NCBI GenBank assembly: GCA_938015595.1
Contig: CALLPI010000008.1
Coordinates: 124,001-188,000, forward strand
DNA length: 64,000 nucleotides
Reading direction: 5' to 3'
From: an uncultured Saprospiraceae bacterium
Lineage (GTDB): Bacteria; Bacteroidota; Bacteroidia; Chitinophagales; Saprospiraceae
Shown here: one piece after another, positions 9,562 through 17,754 of the stretch
How positions within the stretch are numbered: position 1 is the first letter of the stretch
Layout: every line of letters begins with the position of its first letter
The notes under the pieces: generated by a model
The model's database searches: none
What the model was told of the DNA's origin: nothing
Seen by the model: only the letters and a program-made list of their open reading frames with translations
Translations under genes and position numbers: made by a program

Positions 9562-9813
9562 TTACAAAATAGAGCAGCGTCGTTGGAACGATGCCGAGGC
9601 GTAGAAAAATGGAGCCCCCGGATTGCTCTGGGCAGCACAAGGCATAGCCAAGGCTGCTTGGGCGCTACCGGCCCCTTCAACCGGCAGTCTATCGGGGGCC
9701 CCGGTGACATCTACCCCAACGTCGCCTTTTTGCCCAGTTTGCAGGCACAGGAGTGATTTGGACAAAGAGTGGGAATATTGGACATTCATGGCACACTTCA
9801 TTGAGTAGTACAT
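9562..9813 (-). CDS. Candidate orphan small protein (internal ATG at 9789 gives 75 aa: MNVQYSHSLSKSLLCLQTGQKGDVGVDVTGAPDRLPVEG...)
   Basis: ORF ends 26 nt before its own minus-strand terminator; TATTTTTG -7-like element about 40 nt upstream; no homology recognised. Confidence 0.4.
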   Translation of the reverse strand: MYYSMKCAMNVQYSHSLSKSLLCLQTGQKGDVGVDVTGAPDRLPVEGAGSAQAALAMPCAAQSNPGAPFFYASASFQRRCSIL

Positions 9814-10639: not shown

Positions 10640-12145
10640 ATGTATGCTCAGGAACTCACCGAAATTGCCATACTCGGCTTAGACCGCCGAGCACTGCCGG
10701 CGCACTTCAAACCTTCGGATACGAGAAGCAACCTTCCTGAAGATGCCGCCCTATTGCTGCGTGCTCTGGCGCGCGCACATTACCAGCGCAAAGCCGCCGC
10801 ACCTCTCTTACAGATGACTCAACTACCGGCTGCGGCTTCTCCTGTTGCCACGACGCCAGCGTGCTGTGAACGCTCGGCCCAGCATCTGCACGAAATACTA
10901 TATGGCCCCTACCGGCCTATTTTACCTGAGTTTTTACAAGCGCTACAAGCTGCCAGGCGCTGTTTGCCCTATCGCCATCTGCCAGCTATGCTGGATTTAG
11001 CCTTGAAAAATACCGACCTAGCCGACATTATCCTGGCTTTGGCCGGCGACCGGAGCGCGTGGCTGGCGCAGCAGGTGGCCCGCTGGCAAGTGCTGTTTAT
11101 TGTACCTGACCCTGCTCGTTGGCCTCTGGCCGGCCTGGAAGAACGCGTGCACATACTCCGGCATGTGCGGCGGCAAAATCCAGCTCAAGGACTGGAGCTA
11201 TTACTTTCCGCTTGGGAGCAGGATGGTATCAGGGAGCGCAGCAGACTGTTGCCGGCCCTGGAAACGAGCCTGTCACCAGCAGACGAAGACTTCCTAGAAA
11301 GCTGCTTGCGTGAAAATCACAGAGAACTTCGCCAAACTGCGGCCAGGCTATTGAGCCTCCTGCCGGACTCGGCGCTGAACAAACGGCTTCAAGGATATGC
11401 AGCCAGTATATTTGCAAAAGGTGTGCGCGGCAACAGGTGGGAGATTCACGTACCAGACCAATTGCCTGGCACCTGGGAGCGCGACCTGGTGCTTCCGCCG
11501 GCTAATGCCCCGGGTGGCCCAAAGGCTGCCATTCTGCGCCGGGTAGTGGGCAGTATTCCCCCTGACTACTGGACGACGTTACTCGCTGCTCGCTGCGAGG
11601 AAATCCTGCACCAATGGTATCAGAGCCAGTGGTCAGTAGCGCTCTTGCAAGGTCTGGCCGCAGCCGTACAACGCCACCGAGCCTCGGCCTGGGCCGACGC
11701 CATAGCCATCTATGCCCAACAACACGACGCACCGCGCATATCCGGCCTGGATGAGGTGCTGGCCGAACGTATAACGCCCGCCGCCCTGATGGAAGCCATA
11801 CATCACTTGGCCCGCCATGGTGGCATTATACGTGACAGCAGCCTGAGCCTATACTTGTTGCAACATGGCAATGCACGCTGGCCTGACGAGGTGGCCCTTG
11901 CTCTGATAAAAGGCTTGCAGAACAAGATGATCCAGCATGGTAGGCATGCCTCAGGGATGTGGCACTACCGGGCGCTGCTGCGGCAGGCGGCAGCCTTTAA
12001 AATTAATCCACACCTTTGTACAGCAATAGAACAGGACTGGCATCCTGAAGCACTACTGTGGGCCGAAGAATGGGAAAAGGACATCCGATTCCTCATACAA
12101 ACATTGGCTTTTCGACGCGACATGCTGGCGGCCTTAGCCATATAG
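10640..12145 (+). CDS. DUF5691-like protein
   Basis: N-terminal TEIAILGLDRRALP...LLLRALARAHYQRKA pattern and HEAT-like alpha-helical body. Confidence 0.7.
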   Translation: MYAQELTEIAILGLDRRALPAHFKPSDTRSNLPEDAALLLRALARAHYQRKAAAPLLQMTQLPAAASPVATTPACCERSAQHLHEILYGPYRPILPEFLQALQAARRCLPYRHLPAMLDLALKNTDLADIILALAGDRSAWLAQQVARWQVLFIVPDPARWPLAGLEERVHILRHVRRQNPAQGLELLLSAWEQDGIRERSRLLPALETSLSPADEDFLESCLRENHRELRQTAARLLSLLPDSALNKRLQGYAASIFAKGVRGNRWEIHVPDQLPGTWERDLVLPPANAPGGPKAAILRRVVGSIPPDYWTTLLAARCEEILHQWYQSQWSVALLQGLAAAVQRHRASAWADAIAIYAQQHDAPRISGLDEVLAERITPAALMEAIHHLARHGGIIRDSSLSLYLLQHGNARWPDEVALALIKGLQNKMIQHGRHASGMWHYRALLRQAAAFKINPHLCTAIEQDWHPEALLWAEEWEKDIRFLIQTLAFRRDMLAALAI

Positions 12146-12907
12146 TTCATAGCGAATCTGCTGCTTGGAGTAGCCCAGCTTGACCAGCAGATTGGCCACA
12201 GCATCGTCAATCATATTGCTCCATCCGCACAGGTAGAAGTCGAGGTTGGGCTGTGGCGTCGGGTAAGCTTCCATGTATATTTGGTGTACGTACCCTTTGA
12301 CTACCGGAAAGCTGAACGCGCCAGCGTCTATGTGAGCTTCCCGCGAGAGTGCCACAGAATAGCGAAAATTGGGCATCTCCTGGTTTAGGCGCTCAAACTC
12401 ATCGCGGTAGAGTATGCCCTCTGTGTAGCGCGTACCATATATTAGGTGTAGGCTACCATAAGGTAGTTGGCGCTCGCGTATATCCTGGATCATACTGCGA
12501 AAGGGGGCTACTCCGGTGCCAGTACACACAAATACCAGATGGCGGCCTGTCAGGTCGTCGGGCAGCACAAAGTTGCCATCAGGGCCTTTAAAGCGAATGA
12601 CATCGCCCACTTGAGCTTGTTCAAAAAGATAGGCAGAGGCTGCGCCGCCTTCCAAGCGAACAATGACAAACTCCAGTACGTGTGTCTGAGAAGGCGCATT
12701 GGCAATGGAATAACTGCGCCAGCGCTTGAGGCGTTTTTCATGTATGGGTAAGTCCATAGTTACAAACTGCCCGGCTTTAAAGACCAGGGGTTCATCGCCT
12801 TGCACTTCCAGCCAAAAGCGGCGTACGCCCGGGGCGGCTTCTTCTATGCGACTGATGAGGCTGTCGTACCATTTCCAGGCCATGCCGATAGATGCTTTAT
12901 CTGTCAT
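12134..12907 (-). CDS. Ferredoxin-NADP reductase-like oxidoreductase
   Basis: RRWRSYSIANAPSQ (FAD), VCTGTGVAPFRSMIQD (NAD(P)), YLCGWSNMIDD; start MTDKAS at 12907. Confidence 0.88.
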   Translation of the reverse strand: MTDKASIGMAWKWYDSLISRIEEAAPGVRRFWLEVQGDEPLVFKAGQFVTMDLPIHEKRLKRWRSYSIANAPSQTHVLEFVIVRLEGGAASAYLFEQAQVGDVIRFKGPDGNFVLPDDLTGRHLVFVCTGTGVAPFRSMIQDIRERQLPYGSLHLIYGTRYTEGILYRDEFERLNQEMPNFRYSVALSREAHIDAGAFSFPVVKGYVHQIYMEAYPTPQPNLDFYLCGWSNMIDDAVANLLVKLGYSKQQIRYELYG

Positions 12908-13459
12908 ATAAAGCCCTCGAGCACGGGCTTTGTTCAATGTTTGCTGACAACTTGCCTCTGTTGTACACTTTTTTTGCAATGGGCAATTTTTTTTCAGTAG
13001 GGAACTTTTCTTTTTAGCTATAGGTTTTAGCCATGTATCAAGCAGATAAGCAATACGTTCAAACTTCGAGTCATGTTGTGTAACCTATTCACTCATCATT
13101 GTTGTTTTGCTAGCCCCAACGGGTGCGCGCAAATGAACGGAAAGCAGTTTCGCCAATGGCGGCACTGCACCTCGTTCGGCAGCAGCTCTGCCAGGACAAG
13201 CGGCTTGGGTGGGTTACGTAAAAAGTTACTTGATCCTCCTGTCTGCTAGCACATTGCTTTTCTATATATGGATTGACAAGGTGATAAAATCTTTCTCTAA
13301 CGTTAGGGTGATTGTACTTCGTCATTGGCAGTGTCTTGGGGCTAATGACCAGGATGCACCAAGTGCTGCACCTAGGGGACTGGACCCAACCGCCGAAGTG
13401 CGCCTGGCAATTTCTGTGCATTTCATCTAGTATTTTAACAAAAAAATCAGTCGTGTAGA

Positions 13460-13482
13460 AGTGCGCAAATACACTGCGCACT
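13460..13482. repeat. Intergenic hairpin AGTGCGCA-N7-TGCGCACT
   Basis: Perfect 8-bp inverted repeat in noncoding DNA before the tRNA-like array. Confidence 0.5.
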
Positions 13483-13604
13483 ATGGTGAGTATTTTTGTC
13501 TTGTCGAAAGCGACAGCCATACCTAAACCGGGTCAGGGTAGGCTAAAGGCCTCCCTCAATACCGCAGCGGCGCGGACACTTGAAACTCATACAAGGCAAC
13601 AGCA

Positions 13605-13624
13605 GTAGCGATCAGATGCGCTAC
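13605..13624. repeat. Hairpin GTAGCG-N8-CGCTAC upstream of the tRNA-like array
   Basis: Perfect 6-bp inverted repeat. Confidence 0.4.
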
Positions 13625-13709
13625 TTCGTCACTGGCTACAACCGAGTGGGGAAAATTATTAAATGCTATGAATTTTTCTTCTCTGTTGGTTTTTGATCAT
13701 TCTCAACCT

Positions 13710-13782
13710 GGTGGCATGGCGCAACAGTAGCGCACCCGATTGTCTATCGGGAGGTTGCGGGTTCAAGCCCCGTTGTCACCGC
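13710..13782 (+). tRNA. tRNA-Asp(GTC)-like with non-canonical 7-nt D-loop (AACAGTA)
   Basis: Acceptor GGTGGCA/TGTCACC, D stem GCGC/GCGC, anticodon arm CCCGA-TTGTCTA-TCGGG, T-arm GCGGG-TTCAAGC-CCCGT, discriminator G. Confidence 0.78.
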
Positions 13783-13789
13783 AGAATTT

Positions 13790-13864
13790 AGCCCGATCTT
13801 TCAATAGGAAGGGCAGAGGACTACGGACCCTCAAATTATTAAGGTTCAAATCCTTATCGGGCTG
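13790..13864 (+). ncRNA. Degenerate tRNA-Arg(ACG)-like unit
   Basis: Acceptor AGCCCGA/TCGGGCT (7 bp), T-arm TAAGG-TTCAAAT-CCTTA, anticodon loop CTACGGA (ACG); D stem weak (T.C, T.G, T.G, C-G), A.C mismatch closing the anticodon loop, 7-nt variable loop; followed by a T7 run. Confidence 0.6.
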
Positions 13865-13909
13865 CTCTTTTTTTCATGCCAATCTGGAAAGAAGCTAAAT
13901 CTCTATAGT

Positions 13910-13982
13910 ACAAAGGTAGCTCAGCAGGTAGAGCACCGGCCTTTTAAGCCGGGAGGTGTGGGTTCGATACCCACCCTTTGTA
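13910..13982 (+). tRNA. tRNA-Lys(TTT)
   Basis: Acceptor ACAAAGG/CCTTTGT, D arm GCTC-AGCAGGTA-GAGC, anticodon arm CCGGC-CTTTTAA-GCCGG, T-arm GTGGG-TTCGATA-CCCAC, discriminator A. Confidence 0.92.
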
Positions 13983-13999
13983 CAAAAATATGACAACAA

Positions 14000-14072
14000 A
14001 GTTCTGTGTCCGACTGGTCATGGAGCCGGTTTGCAAAACCGCGCTATGCGGGTTCGATTCCCGCCAGAACTT
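14000..14072 (+). tRNA. tRNA-Cys(GCA)
   Basis: Acceptor AGTTCTG/CAGAACT, D arm TCCG-ACTGGTCA-TGGA, anticodon loop TTGCAAA (one C.C mismatch at the stem base), T-arm GCGGG-TTCGATT-CCCGC, discriminator T. Confidence 0.86.
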
Positions 14073-14074
14073 CT

Positions 14075-14186
14075 ACAAGTGGCAGCGAGCTTTTGGGATA
14101 CTTCGGAAATAAGGTTCGACTCCTAATAGATCTATCATAACATAGGTTTATAAGCTCCCGGAGCAGTTTTCTCCACTTGTTTTTTT
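14075..14186 (+). ncRNA. Candidate bacterial Y RNA (Ro60-binding RNA): long terminal stem, internal T-arm-like hairpin, terminal U-run
   Basis: P1 ACAAGTGG(14075-14082)/CCACTTGT(14173-14180), P2 GAGCTT(14087-14092)/AAGCTC(14152-14157), T-arm-like TAAGG-TTCGACT-CCTAA (14110-14126), hairpin ATCTAT-CATAAC-ATAGGT (14130-14147), then TTTTTT; adjacent to a Ro60 gene. Confidence 0.4.
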
Positions 14187-14189
14187 CTA

Positions 14190-14263
14190 GGAAAGAGGCG
14201 CAGTCAGAAAAGTGCAAATGCTTTGAGAGTTCGAGGATGTGGATTCGAATCTCGCCTTTTCCG
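14190..14263 (+). ncRNA. Degenerate tRNA-like unit (anticodon uncertain: TTG/Gln-like or TGA/Ser-like)
   Basis: Acceptor-like GGAAAG/(C)TTTTCC, D-stem-like GCGC/GTGC, T-loop TTCGAAT with imperfect stem, discriminator G; anticodon stem essentially unpaired, position 8 is G. Confidence 0.42.
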
Positions 14264-14306
14264 TTAGAGAGTAATACCATTTGTTTACTTTTAAATCTTT
14301 TTGAAC

Positions 14307-15746
14307 ATGGCACGATTCAATCCTAAGAGCCCGAGCAAGTCTAAAACAGTAAACCTTGCTAATGGTAGGGCTTTTATGCAGTCTCCAAAGATGCAACTGG
14401 CATCGCTGTTGCTGACCTCTTTCGCGCAAGACCAGTTCTACCGCAACACCGACCAGACATTCAGCGAGTTGATTGGCTTGCTGCCTCGTGTGGACGCTGA
14501 ATTTGCGGCTAAGGCTGCTTTGTTTGCCCGCAATGAATTTGGCATGCGAAGCATTACTCATGTACTAGCTAAAGAACTGGCTATATATGCCTCTGGCAAG
14601 CCATGGGCAAAGACTTTCTATGAAAAGATCGTGCGCCGCCCCGACGACATGACAGAGATACTGGCCTTGCTGTTGGCTGAAAAGAGGGCTGCTATACCTA
14701 ACGCCGCGCGTAAGGGCTTTGCCAAAGCTTTCGATAAATTCGATGGCTACCAATTGGCCAAGTACCGCGGCGAAGATAAAAATGTAAAACTGGTGGACGT
14801 AGTGAACCTCGTGCACCCGAAGCCAACGGCACGCAATGCTGAGGCACTGCACCAGTTGGTAGAAGGCACATTGCGCAACACCAATACTTGGGAAGCCAAG
14901 CTTACCGAAGTCGGTCAAATTGCCGGAGATGAGGAATTGAAGACTGCAATGAAGGCCGAAGTCTGGGCTGAACTCGTCCAAACGCGCAAAATTGGCTACT
15001 TCGCTCTGCTGCGCAACTTACGCAACATTGCCGAACAAGCGCCGCACGTTGTGCCATATGCTTGCGCATTGCTGACTGACGAACGGCTCATCAAGCAGTC
15101 GCTGGTATTGCCCTTCCGCTTCACTACGGCTTTTGAAGCAGTAAAGGCGGCTAAGACCAGGGATAAGCCTATGATAATTAATGCACTGAACTACGCCTTG
15201 GATCTGGCGATGGCCAACGTGCCGAAACTGCCCGGTAAGACGCTGGTAGCGCTCGACGACTCCGGCTCTATGATGGGGCGCCCGATCCAGATTGGCGCAA
15301 TGTTTGCCGCTGTGCTATACTGCGCAAATGACGCCGACCTGATGTGCTTCTCTGACTCGGCGAAGTATGTGCATTATAACCGGAAAAGCCCAGTGATGGT
15401 CATTGCTAATGACTTGGTTCGAAACGCTCGTAGCGCTGGCACGAACTTCAATGCTATTTTTGAAAATGTCAAGAAGAAGTACGATCGCATCGTGATCCTG
15501 TCTGATATGCAAGGCTGGGTAGGCGGTGGGGCTCCCCAAAAGGCGTTTGCCGCTTACAAAAAGTACACCGGCGCAGATCCCTTCATTTACTCCTTCGATC
15601 TGCAGGGCTACGGCTCGCTGCAGTTCCCGGAAAATAAGGTATTTGCACTGGCCGGTTTCAGCGAAAAGGTTTTTGACCTGATGGGTGTGCTGGAAAAAGA
15701 TCCGATGATCTTGGTGCGCCAAATCGAAGCCGTAACGCTGATATGA
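14307..15746 (+). CDS. rsr: TROVE-domain protein, bacterial Ro60 orthologue (Rsr)
   Basis: TROVE HEAT-like body plus vWA-like C-terminus with MIDAS-type DDSGSMMG; ATG at 14307 preferred over TTG 14301. Confidence 0.93.
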   Translation: MARFNPKSPSKSKTVNLANGRAFMQSPKMQLASLLLTSFAQDQFYRNTDQTFSELIGLLPRVDAEFAAKAALFARNEFGMRSITHVLAKELAIYASGKPWAKTFYEKIVRRPDDMTEILALLLAEKRAAIPNAARKGFAKAFDKFDGYQLAKYRGEDKNVKLVDVVNLVHPKPTARNAEALHQLVEGTLRNTNTWEAKLTEVGQIAGDEELKTAMKAEVWAELVQTRKIGYFALLRNLRNIAEQAPHVVPYACALLTDERLIKQSLVLPFRFTTAFEAVKAAKTRDKPMIINALNYALDLAMANVPKLPGKTLVALDDSGSMMGRPIQIGAMFAAVLYCANDADLMCFSDSAKYVHYNRKSPVMVIANDLVRNARSAGTNFNAIFENVKKKYDRIVILSDMQGWVGGGAPQKAFAAYKKYTGADPFIYSFDLQGYGSLQFPENKVFALAGFSEKVFDLMGVLEKDPMILVRQIEAVTLI

Positions 15747-15783
15747 TGGATGCGCATTTGAAACAGCAAGTAGTATGTGCGGC

Positions 15784-15825
15784 AAGGCGACTCTCCCGCG
15801 TGCGAGAGGGTCGCCTTTGCTTTTT
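15784..15825 (+). terminator. Strong intrinsic terminator of the tRNA-like array/rsr unit
   Basis: 12-bp stem AAGGCGACTCTC/GAGAGGGTCGCCTT (one G.T) followed by TTGCTTTTTG. Confidence 0.82.
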
Positions 15826-15876
15826 GTGGGTGTAGTACTAGTCGGGTATTGCTATTTTTTACTTGCCAGGCAATGC

Positions 15877-17754
15877 TTATCCTTTTATCATCTCTACACT
15901 ACGCTTTACGAAAGTGGCCAGGTCTTCGCCGCGCAGCATGTGGTGCGACAGCAAAGCCAGTTGATACAGGTGGCGAGCTAAGTCCTGCTGGGTGTCTTCA
16001 TTGCTGATGGTCAGGAGCTTTTGCGTTACTACCGGGTGGTTGGTATTTACCACTACATCGTAGGTGTCAGGAAAGGCGTCTTGCAGGCCGTTGGTCATGC
16101 CCTGGAGCATCTGCATTTCCTTGAATCGGCGCATGAACTCCGGCTTTACAATGTGCACAGGTGCATCTTCAGGCGACATAGGCTCTAGCACCACCGAAAT
16201 GCCGGCACCTTGAGCTACCACTTCGAAAATGGCTTTGACTTTTTCTTGCTCCTTGTCGCTAAGCACTGATTCTTTGGTTTCGTCTTTCTGTACCAGTTTA
16301 TCAATGGTGGCAGAGTCAATGCGCACGAAGGTGACGTCGCCCAGCTTGGCTTCCAGGTGCTGCATGAAGTGGTTGTCTATGAAGTCGGGCATAACCAGCA
16401 CATCGTAGCCTCTGTCTTTGCAAGCCTGTAGCAAGGTGGTATGCTGATCTACGTGGTTGGTGTAGAGCAATACAGTTTTGTTGTACTTGTCGGTTTGCAG
16501 AGCTTTGACCTTGTCGCGGTATTCTTCGATGGTGAAGTATTCGTCGTTTGTATTTTTAAGCAGGACAAACTGCCGGCCGCGCTCCTCGAACTTGTCATCG
16601 GAGATGATGCCGTACTTGACGAAGATGCCCAGATCGTTCCACTTTTCTTCAAAGACCTTGCGATCTTTTTTAAAGAGGTCGTGGAGTTTGTCGGCTACCT
16701 TTTTGGTAATGTAGCCAGTGATTTTCTTGACGTTGCTGTCGGCTTGCAGGTAGCTTCGCGATACGTTGAGCGGAATGTCGGGTGAGTCAATGACGCCATG
16801 CAGCAGGGTGAGAAACTCCGGCACAATTTGTTTGACATCGTCAGTGACGAACACCTGGTTGGAGTAGAGCTGGATTTTATTTTTCTGTAGTTCAAAGTTA
16901 TTGCCCAACTTTGGGAAGTACAGCACGCCCGTGAGGTTAAAGGGGTAGTCAATATTGAGGTGAATCCAGAACATGGGCGCGGTGCTGAAGGGGTACAACT
17001 CTTCGTAAAACTTCTGGTAATCCTCATCGCTGAGTTCGGCGGGTTGTTTTTTCCAGAGGGGTTCGGGGTTGTTCACGATGTTGTCCACCTCGGTATGTAC
17101 GGGTTTTTCGTCATCGCCTTCGCCTTGCCAGGTGGTTTCGGTGCGCTTGCCAAAGCGAATAGGGATAGGCAGGAATCGGCAGTACTTTTTAAGCAACCCC
17201 TCGATGCGGTGCTGGTCGAGATATTCTTCGCTGTCTTCGGCTATATGGAGCACAATGTCAGTGCCGCGCTCTTGTTTGTCGTTAGGCGTAAGGGTATATT
17301 CGGGGTTGCCTTCGCAGGCCCAGGTCACGCCGGGTTCGTCGGGCAGGTAAGATTTGGTGATGGCTTCCACGCGCTTAGCAACCATGAAGGCGGAGTAAAA
17401 GCCCAAGCCGAATTGCCCGATGATGTTGTGATCGAGTTTGTACTTTTCAATGAAGTCATGTGCACTGGAGAAAGCTACCTGATTGAGGTATTTTTCTACC
17501 TCCTCGGCGGTCATGCCGATGCCGCGATCGCGGATGGTAAGGGTTTTGCTTTCCTTGTCCAGGATAATGTCAATGGTGGTATCGCCAATTTCGCCTTGCA
17601 ATGCACCCTTTGCAGCTAAGGCTTTGAGCTTGACGGTGGCATCCACAGCATTGGATACCAATTCGCGCAAGAAGATTTCTTGATCGGAATACAAGTACTT
17701 CTTAATGATGGGGAAGATGTTCTCGGTTTGAACAGAGATGCGACCGGTCTGCAT
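15877..17754 (-). CDS. htpG: Molecular chaperone HtpG (Hsp90)
   Basis: ELVSNAVDA, DRGIGMT, GQFGLGFYSAFMV, full length 625 aa. Confidence 0.98.
   Translation of the reverse strand: MQTGRISVQTENIFPIIKKYLYSDQEIFLRELVSNAVDATVKLKALAAKGALQGEIGDTTIDIILDKESKTLTIRDRGIGMTAEEVEKYLNQVAFSSAHDFIEKYKLDHNIIGQFGLGFYSAFMVAKRVEAITKSYLPDEPGVTWACEGNPEYTLTPNDKQERGTDIVLHIAEDSEEYLDQHRIEGLLKKYCRFLPIPIRFGKRTETTWQGEGDDEKPVHTEVDNIVNNPEPLWKKQPAELSDEDYQKFYEELYPFSTAPMFWIHLNIDYPFNLTGVLYFPKLGNNFELQKNKIQLYSNQVFVTDDVKQIVPEFLTLLHGVIDSPDIPLNVSRSYLQADSNVKKITGYITKKVADKLHDLFKKDRKVFEEKWNDLGIFVKYGIISDDKFEERGRQFVLLKNTNDEYFTIEEYRDKVKALQTDKYNKTVLLYTNHVDQHTTLLQACKDRGYDVLVMPDFIDNHFMQHLEAKLGDVTFVRIDSATIDKLVQKDETKESVLSDKEQEKVKAIFEVVAQGAGISVVLEPMSPEDAPVHIVKPEFMRRFKEMQMLQGMTNGLQDAFPDTYDVVVNTNHPVVTQKLLTISNEDTQQDLARHLYQLALLSHHMLRGEDLATFVKRSVEMIKG

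What the first reader, a model, noticed from the sequence alone, without database searches (positions are those of the whole stretch)
14075..14186. Candidate Y RNA inside the array: nested stems enclosing a T-arm, ending in a U-run
This unit does not fold as a tRNA. Its ends pair perfectly over 8 bp (ACAAGTGG/CCACTTGT). A second helix (GAGCTT/AAGCTC) lies inside with asymmetric internal loops, and the core contains a T-arm-like hairpin (TAAGG-TTCGACT-CCTAA, one mismatch) plus hairpin ATCTAT-CATAAC-ATAGGT. A run of T residues follows. Long terminal helix, internal loop and tRNA-like T-arm is the layout of YrlA-class bacterial Y RNAs, and a Ro60 gene is about 120 nt downstream.
Basis: partly seen in the sequence, partly recalled or inferred. 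Interest (0 to 1): 0.82.

Follow-up and report, generated by a model that had tools for sequence, protein, structure and literature searches.

The report
Y RNA gene beside Ro60
The stretch encodes a small structured RNA of the kind that binds the RNA-quality-control protein Ro60, in a stripped-down form that keeps only part of the usual tRNA look-alike domain and sits inside a row of spare tRNA genes just upstream of the Ro60 gene.

Summary
Window 14075-14180 (+) encodes a bacterial Y RNA, 126 bp upstream of a Ro60/TROVE gene. A covariance model trained on 38 RNAs next to other TROVE genes, without the window or its genus mate, finds it at 46.4 bits, E=1.5e-9. The genus-mate copy changes 7 of 8 terminal pairs on both sides. 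Across 25 relatives, 18 of 19 P1/P2/T-arm pairs show two-sided changes. The real P2 is GCUUUUGGG/CCCGGAGC, next to an invariant UACUUC motif. A second: the U-run is not conserved in the genus mate. Full-length relatives carry a circularly permuted tRNA-like domain (T-arm, closed acceptor-like hairpin, D-arm) and give sub-threshold hits to Rfam YrlA (31-46 bits). The window copy keeps the T-arm and hairpin but has no D-arm or anticodon-like arm, and Rfam misses it. So it is a YrlA-related Y RNA with a reduced tRNA-mimic domain. The neighbouring tRNA array duplicates genomic tRNAs with much diverged sequences. Similar TROVE, Y RNA and often tRNA-array loci occur in Saprospiraceae, Clostridia and large phages. 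Expression and binding are untested.

The parts
14075..14180 (+). Y RNA gene, 106 nt, reduced tRNA-like domain
   Evidence: Hold-out covariance model 46.4 bits, E=1.5e-9; ortholog in genus mate L079 9564-9673, 54.7 bits; pair counts
14075..14082 (+). P1 5' strand ACAAGTGG
   Evidence: Perfect 8 bp with 14173-14180; 7 of 8 pairs changed on both sides in L032/L079; all 8 columns covary
14173..14180 (+). P1 3' strand CCACTTGT
   Evidence: Pairs with 14075-14082
14083..14088 (+). 5' side of the conserved internal loop (CAGCGA; family consensus GCAGUGA overlapping the end of P1)
   Evidence: Consensus of A2/A3
14165..14172 (+). 3' side of the internal loop (AGTTTTCT; family consensus UUUUCUC running into P1')
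   Evidence: Consensus of A2/A3
14089..14097 (+). P2 5' strand GCTTTTGGG (one bulged U)
   Evidence: Pairs with CCCGGAGC; inner pairs 0.63-0.76 in the ensemble, outer two 0.04; 6 of 6 tested columns covary
14157..14164 (+). P2 3' strand CCCGGAGC
14098..14106 (+). ATACTTCGG motif at the inner end of P2; TACTTC is invariant in the 38-sequence alignment
14110..14126 (+). T-arm-like hairpin TAAGG-TTCGACT-CCTAA
   Evidence: GTTCGA(C/A/G)TCC conserved in nearly all relatives; helix 3, 96.7% of cells paired
14128..14149 (+). Closed hairpin at the position of the acceptor-like stem of the full-length relatives (8 bp, 6-nt loop)
   Evidence: Ensemble probability 0.87-1.0; 3 of 8 pairs changed on both sides against L079 (sequences, counted by hand)
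14180..14186 (+). T run after the RNA, possible intrinsic terminator; absent in L079
13710..14073 (+). tRNA array Asp(GTC), Arg(ACG, degenerate), Lys(TTT), Cys(GCA); the Cys gene ends 1 nt before the Y RNA
   Evidence: ARAGORN, Rfam tRNA 31-73 bits, distances
14189..14263 (+). Degenerate tRNA-like unit between Y RNA and TROVE; the genus mate has an intact-looking tRNA-Pro here
   Evidence: RF00005 16 bits; alignment
14307..15746 (+). Ro60/TROVE protein gene (479-480 aa) with vWA MIDAS-like DDSGS
   Evidence: PF05731 E=5e-20; PDB matches 9l5y, 1yvp, 2nvo

Best explanation
The stretch is the gene of a 106-nt bacterial Y RNA related to YrlA. Its two ends form P1, an asymmetric internal loop with conserved GCAGUGA/UUUUCUC sequences and then P2, capped by an invariant UACUUC motif. 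This part is shared by the TROVE-linked relatives and is inferred to be the handle that the neighbouring Ro60 protein binds. The distal end carries a T-arm-like hairpin and a closed acceptor-like hairpin. It is inferred to be the effector end that docks a partner (PNPase in known Ro60 machines) or covers the Ro60 ring, in a reduced form without the D-arm. The RNA is probably made as part of a tRNA-array transcript, because its 5' end lies 0-1 nt after tRNA-Cys in both genus members; tRNA 3' processing would then release it. Shown here: the gene, its structure and covariation, and its linkage to TROVE. Inferred: transcription, Ro60 binding, effector docking.
For: Hold-out model: window 46.4 bits, E=1.5e-9 and genus mate 54.7 bits. 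On 73.8 kb of tRNA loci from the same genome the best score is 33.9 bits, over the tRNA-like positions 51-108 only. Covariation: 28 of 30 pairs with two-sided changes over 38 relatives; 18 of 19 in an alignment that includes the window, covariation score 0.706 against 0.223 shuffled and at most 0.235 slid. TROVE gene 126 nt downstream. Full-length relatives match Rfam YrlA at 31-46 bits. The genome encodes PNPase. Published architecture and function of YrlA: basal stem binds Rsr, tRNA-like domain binds PNPase (PMC8394870).
Against: Rfam YrlA does not match the window RNA itself even at E=10. The D-arm, part of the published YrlA tRNA-like domain, is absent. No expression or binding data exist here. 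The link to known YrlA passes through the full-length relatives, whose YrlA scores are all below the gathering threshold of 69.
Confidence: 0.88

Rival explanations
1. It is a decayed tRNA of the array, like its neighbours, that happens to fold with a long stem and has no Ro60-related role.
For: It lies in an array that contains degenerate tRNAs (31.2 and 16 bits) and has a T-arm-like hairpin.
Against: P1 and P2 are kept by compensatory change in the genus mate and in relatives from other phyla and phages; conserved non-tRNA motifs (UACUUC, GCAGUGA, UUUUCUC) are present; the T-arm precedes the acceptor-like hairpin, a permuted order not expected of a decayed tRNA.
Confidence: 0.04
2. It is a cis-acting leader or terminator of the TROVE mRNA (for example an autoregulatory Ro60-binding element) and not a free RNA.
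For: It lies in the TROVE 5' region with a U-run after the stem; such RNAs lie upstream of TROVE on the same strand in many loci.
Against: Some loci carry several copies, some more than 1 kb upstream or downstream of TROVE (L123, L192, L167, L184); the U-run is not conserved; full-length relatives resemble YrlA, known as a free RNA.
Confidence: 0.06
3. It is a Y RNA, but the reduced distal domain no longer works as a tether; the RNA is only a lid that blocks the Ro60 ring and stabilises the protein. (This is a variant of the best explanation, not exclusive of the Y RNA identity.)
For: The D-arm is missing, so the T-loop/D-loop tRNA elbow cannot form; many relatives of 68-80 nt have no tRNA-like part at all.
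Against: The T-arm-like and acceptor-like hairpins are retained in both genus members with compensatory change in the hairpin, which suggests selection on the distal part.
Confidence: 0.3

Closest known systems
YrlA (Rfam RF02553), bacterial Y RNA of Salmonella and others
   Same: Next to a Ro60 gene; long terminal stem; T-arm followed by a closed acceptor-like hairpin (permuted tRNA order); length within 90-150 nt (PMC8394870). Full-length relatives of the window RNA hit the Rfam model at 31-46 bits.
   Different: No D-arm and no anticodon-like arm; not detected by the Rfam model; embedded in a tRNA array; no rtcBA beside it (an RtcB gene exists elsewhere in the genome).
Short TROVE-linked Y RNAs of about 68-80 nt (found here in phages and Saprospiraceae)
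   Same: Same P1, internal loop, P2 and UACUUC motif.
   Different: These have no T-arm or acceptor-like hairpin; the window RNA is intermediate between them and the full-length form.
Deinococcus radiodurans and animal Y RNAs
   Same: Small RNA paired at its ends, partner of Ro60 (published).
   Different: No direct sequence comparison was made here; the relation is by analogy and by the protein family only.

Membership tests
Bacterial Y RNA, YrlA-related (broad sense) | Ro60 (TROVE) gene in the neighbourhood | tested here: met
   PF05731 E=5e-20, start 126 nt downstream; solved Ro60/Rsr relatives
Bacterial Y RNA, YrlA-related (broad sense) | Long stem made by the 5' and 3' ends, kept by compensatory change | tested here: met
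Bacterial Y RNA, YrlA-related (broad sense) | Sequence and structure shared with other TROVE-linked RNAs | tested here: met
   Hold-out model E=1.5e-9; descriptor control
Bacterial Y RNA, YrlA-related (broad sense) | Bound by Ro60/Rsr in the cell | not testable with these tools
   Needs binding assay or pull-down
YrlA in the strict sense (RF02553) | Match to the Rfam covariance model | tested here: not met
   No hit at E up to 10; relatives 31-46 bits, below gathering 69
YrlA in the strict sense (RF02553) | tRNA-like domain with T-arm, acceptor-like and D-arm | tested here: not met
   T-arm and hairpin present, D-arm absent in the window and in L079; present in most relatives
YrlA in the strict sense (RF02553) | Length 90-150 nt | tested here: met
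   106 nt; range from PMC8394870
YrlA in the strict sense (RF02553) | Distal domain binds PNPase | not testable with these tools
   PNPase gene exists in the genome
tRNA | Cloverleaf fold with tRNA arm order | tested here: not met
   No RF00005 hit and no ARAGORN call over 14075-14180

The most novel reading that the evidence does not exclude
TROVE, Y RNA and an array of spare, sequence-diverged tRNAs form one transferable cassette shared by Saprospiraceae and large phages. In it the Y RNA is processed from the tRNA transcript, and Ro60 with its Y RNA looks after, repairs or clears the cassette's tRNAs, for instance when anticodon nucleases cut tRNAs during phage conflict. The tRNA-mimic part of the Y RNA erodes stepwise from full YrlA, to T-arm plus hairpin, to none.
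Probability: 0.25. Interest if true: 0.7.

Novelty: new variant of a known kind. Interest (0 to 1): 0.5.

Why it matters
It extends experimentally recognised bacterial Y RNAs to a group that the public Rfam model misses, and gives a covariance model and a clear consensus (GCAGUGA, GUUACUUC, UUUUCUC) with which to find them. The natural series of full, reduced and absent tRNA-like domains around one protein family makes it possible to test which part of a Y RNA tethers Ro60 to its partners. The recurrent placing of Ro60 and Y RNA beside spare tRNA arrays, in bacteria and phages alike, points to a role in tRNA handling that can be tested directly.

Tried and rejected
A shrunken D-arm in the window (GCUC-CCG-GAGC, 14154-14164): it uses the bases of P2 and is not kept in L079, so rejected. 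U-run as a family feature: absent in L079. Rfam search for YrlA or eukaryotic Y RNA in the window: nothing. Second Y RNA in the window: only partial tRNA matches of 14.5-16.6 bits. Synteny argument with the genus mate: of seven window genes tested only TROVE is present within 10 kb of L079's TROVE. The primary Y RNA papers (Chen 2014, Sim 2018, Sim 2020, Burroughs 2016) are not held, so whether a D-arm-less YrlA has been described could not be checked.

Full report
WHAT IS THERE. The window lies in a Saprospiraceae genome (nearest relative of its TROVE protein is Saprospiraceae UBA2329, 72% identity). Between tRNA-Cys (ends 14073) and a TROVE gene (start 14307) lies a 106-nt unit whose ends pair over 8 bp (14075-14082 with 14173-14180), followed by a T run. 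It folds better than shuffled sequence (z -2.54). ARAGORN and Rfam see tRNAs on its 5' side but nothing on the unit itself. The downstream gene is Ro60/TROVE: PF05731 E=5e-20, and the family profile matches solved TROVE, vertebrate Ro60 and D. radiodurans Rsr structures.

RELATIVES. TROVE relatives were collected from 398 genomes of the family (60 with a match), from one genome per GTDB species (55 loci) and from viral contigs (71 loci, many on contigs of 100-476 kb). The genus mate (L032/L079) has the same RNA in the same place, 0 nt after tRNA-Cys. Seven of its eight P1 pairs differ from the window on both sides (ACAAGTGG/CCACTTGT against TTTGAGTG/CACTCAAA), while the interior sequence is conserved.

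A FAMILY OF RNAs. Scanning the other loci turned up the same architecture again and again near TROVE: P1, GCAGUGA, P2, G(U/A)UACUUC, an optional anticodon-like arm, T-arm GGUUCGAAUCC, a closed acceptor-like hairpin, a D-arm UAGCUCAGUGGUAGAGC, P2', UUUUCUC, P1'. An alignment of 38 of them (window and genus mate left out) gives an RNAalifold structure in which 28 of 30 pairs have two-sided changes. The order T-arm, acceptor, D-arm is that of a circularly permuted tRNA and is the order of Rfam YrlA. Those tested hit that model at 31-46 bits, below its gathering score of 69.

HOLD-OUT TEST. The covariance model R1 from those 38 sequences finds the window RNA at 14074-14181 with 46.4 bits, E=1.5e-9 in 64 kb and the genus-mate RNA with 54.7 bits. 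Over tRNA loci of the same genome the best score is 33.9 bits, covering only the T-arm and D-arm region, where the window RNA has no D-arm to score with. A separate structural descriptor finds 80 such RNAs in 280 kb upstream of TROVE on its strand, none on the other strand, none in shuffled sequence and 4 in about 1.5 Mb of downstream sequence counted over both strands; the descriptor was written after seeing these sequences, so it measures specificity, not discovery. In an alignment that includes the window, 18 of 19 tested pairs show two-sided changes and the covariation score is 0.706 against 0.223 shuffled and at most 0.235 slid.

The conserved P2 is GCUUUUGGG/CCCGGAGC. The T-arm is real by homology, though weak on its own. 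The U-run is not conserved.

REDUCED FORM. Window and genus mate lack the anticodon-like arm and the D-arm. Two phage types are built alike: L170 9421-9522 and L159 9293-9405. Others keep no tRNA-like part (68-80 nt). Because YrlA is described with D-, T- and acceptor-like arms and as a substrate of DusA and TruB (PMC8394870), the reduced form should lose the DusA site and the elbow contact but could keep the TruB site; this is inference.

CONTEXT. The array holds Asp, Arg, Lys and Cys tRNA genes, each of which also exists elsewhere in the genome; the array copies are only about 60-65% identical to those and resemble the genus mate's array more. In the genus mate the cassette is elsewhere: htpG, next to TROVE in the window, is on another contig, and the second genus mate has no TROVE match. 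Three or more tRNAs lie within 5 kb of TROVE in 31 of 126 loci (counted), with up to 36 in one Saprospiraceae contig. TROVE genes accompany 20 of 29 archaeal tRNA clusters (PMC6333295), and a small subset of jumbo phages carry TROVE (PMC7824862). So the association of TROVE with tRNA clusters is known; the Y RNA inside these arrays was not found described in the papers that could be read.

MECHANISM. Established for relatives: the basal stem of YrlA binds the Ro60 ortholog Rsr, and the tRNA-like domain binds PNPase to form an RNA-degrading machine (PMC8394870, citing Chen 2013). By homology the window RNA's P1-loop-P2 is the Ro60 handle; PNPase is encoded in the genome. What the reduced distal end does is open: a weaker tether, a lid, or a holder for tRNA enzymes.

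LIMITS. No expression or binding data. E-values of R1 are rough by construction. Many loci are contig fragments, so absence of a Y RNA or tRNA in them means little. The primary Y RNA papers could not be read here.

Noticed in passing
window 13710-14263; L079 8900-9930; L047 6244-10957; L051; viral L151, L172: TROVE genes often lie beside tRNA arrays (31 of 126 loci with 3 or more tRNAs within 5 kb; 36 tRNAs in L047). The window's array tRNAs duplicate genomic isoacceptors but are only about 60-65% identical to them.
   Followed up: partly
L148 9797-9943, L151 9754-9893, L134 9602-9681, L158, L104 9562-9716, L080 9906-9981: Short Y RNAs of 68-85 nt without any tRNA-like part, sometimes in tandem, next to TROVE in phages and Saprospiraceae; most were not tested against Rfam.
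   Followed up: partly
L119, L120, L123-L130 (Clostridia and Ruminococcus TROVE loci): Up to four or five tandem full-length YrlA-like RNAs upstream of TROVE, with diverse anticodon-like arms; those scanned with Rfam are below the gathering score.
   Followed up: partly
window 14189-14263 and 13790-13865: Two degenerate tRNA-like units (16 and 31 bits) that are better-formed tRNAs in the genus mate: the window's array appears to be decaying.
   Followed up: partly
window 12137-17754 against G001/G002: The TROVE-Y RNA-tRNA cassette is not syntenic in the genus: htpG is on another contig in G001, and G002 has htpG but no TROVE match, which suggests a mobile or relocating cassette.
   Followed up: partly
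L032 1180-1247 (L079 about 9675-9745): Two hairpins with GUAGAAC-type loops between the Y RNA and tRNA-Pro in the genus mate; possibly a small repeat element.
   Followed up: no
G000:C4:101140-102216: RtcB RNA ligase gene elsewhere in the genome, not beside the Ro60 gene.
   Followed up: no
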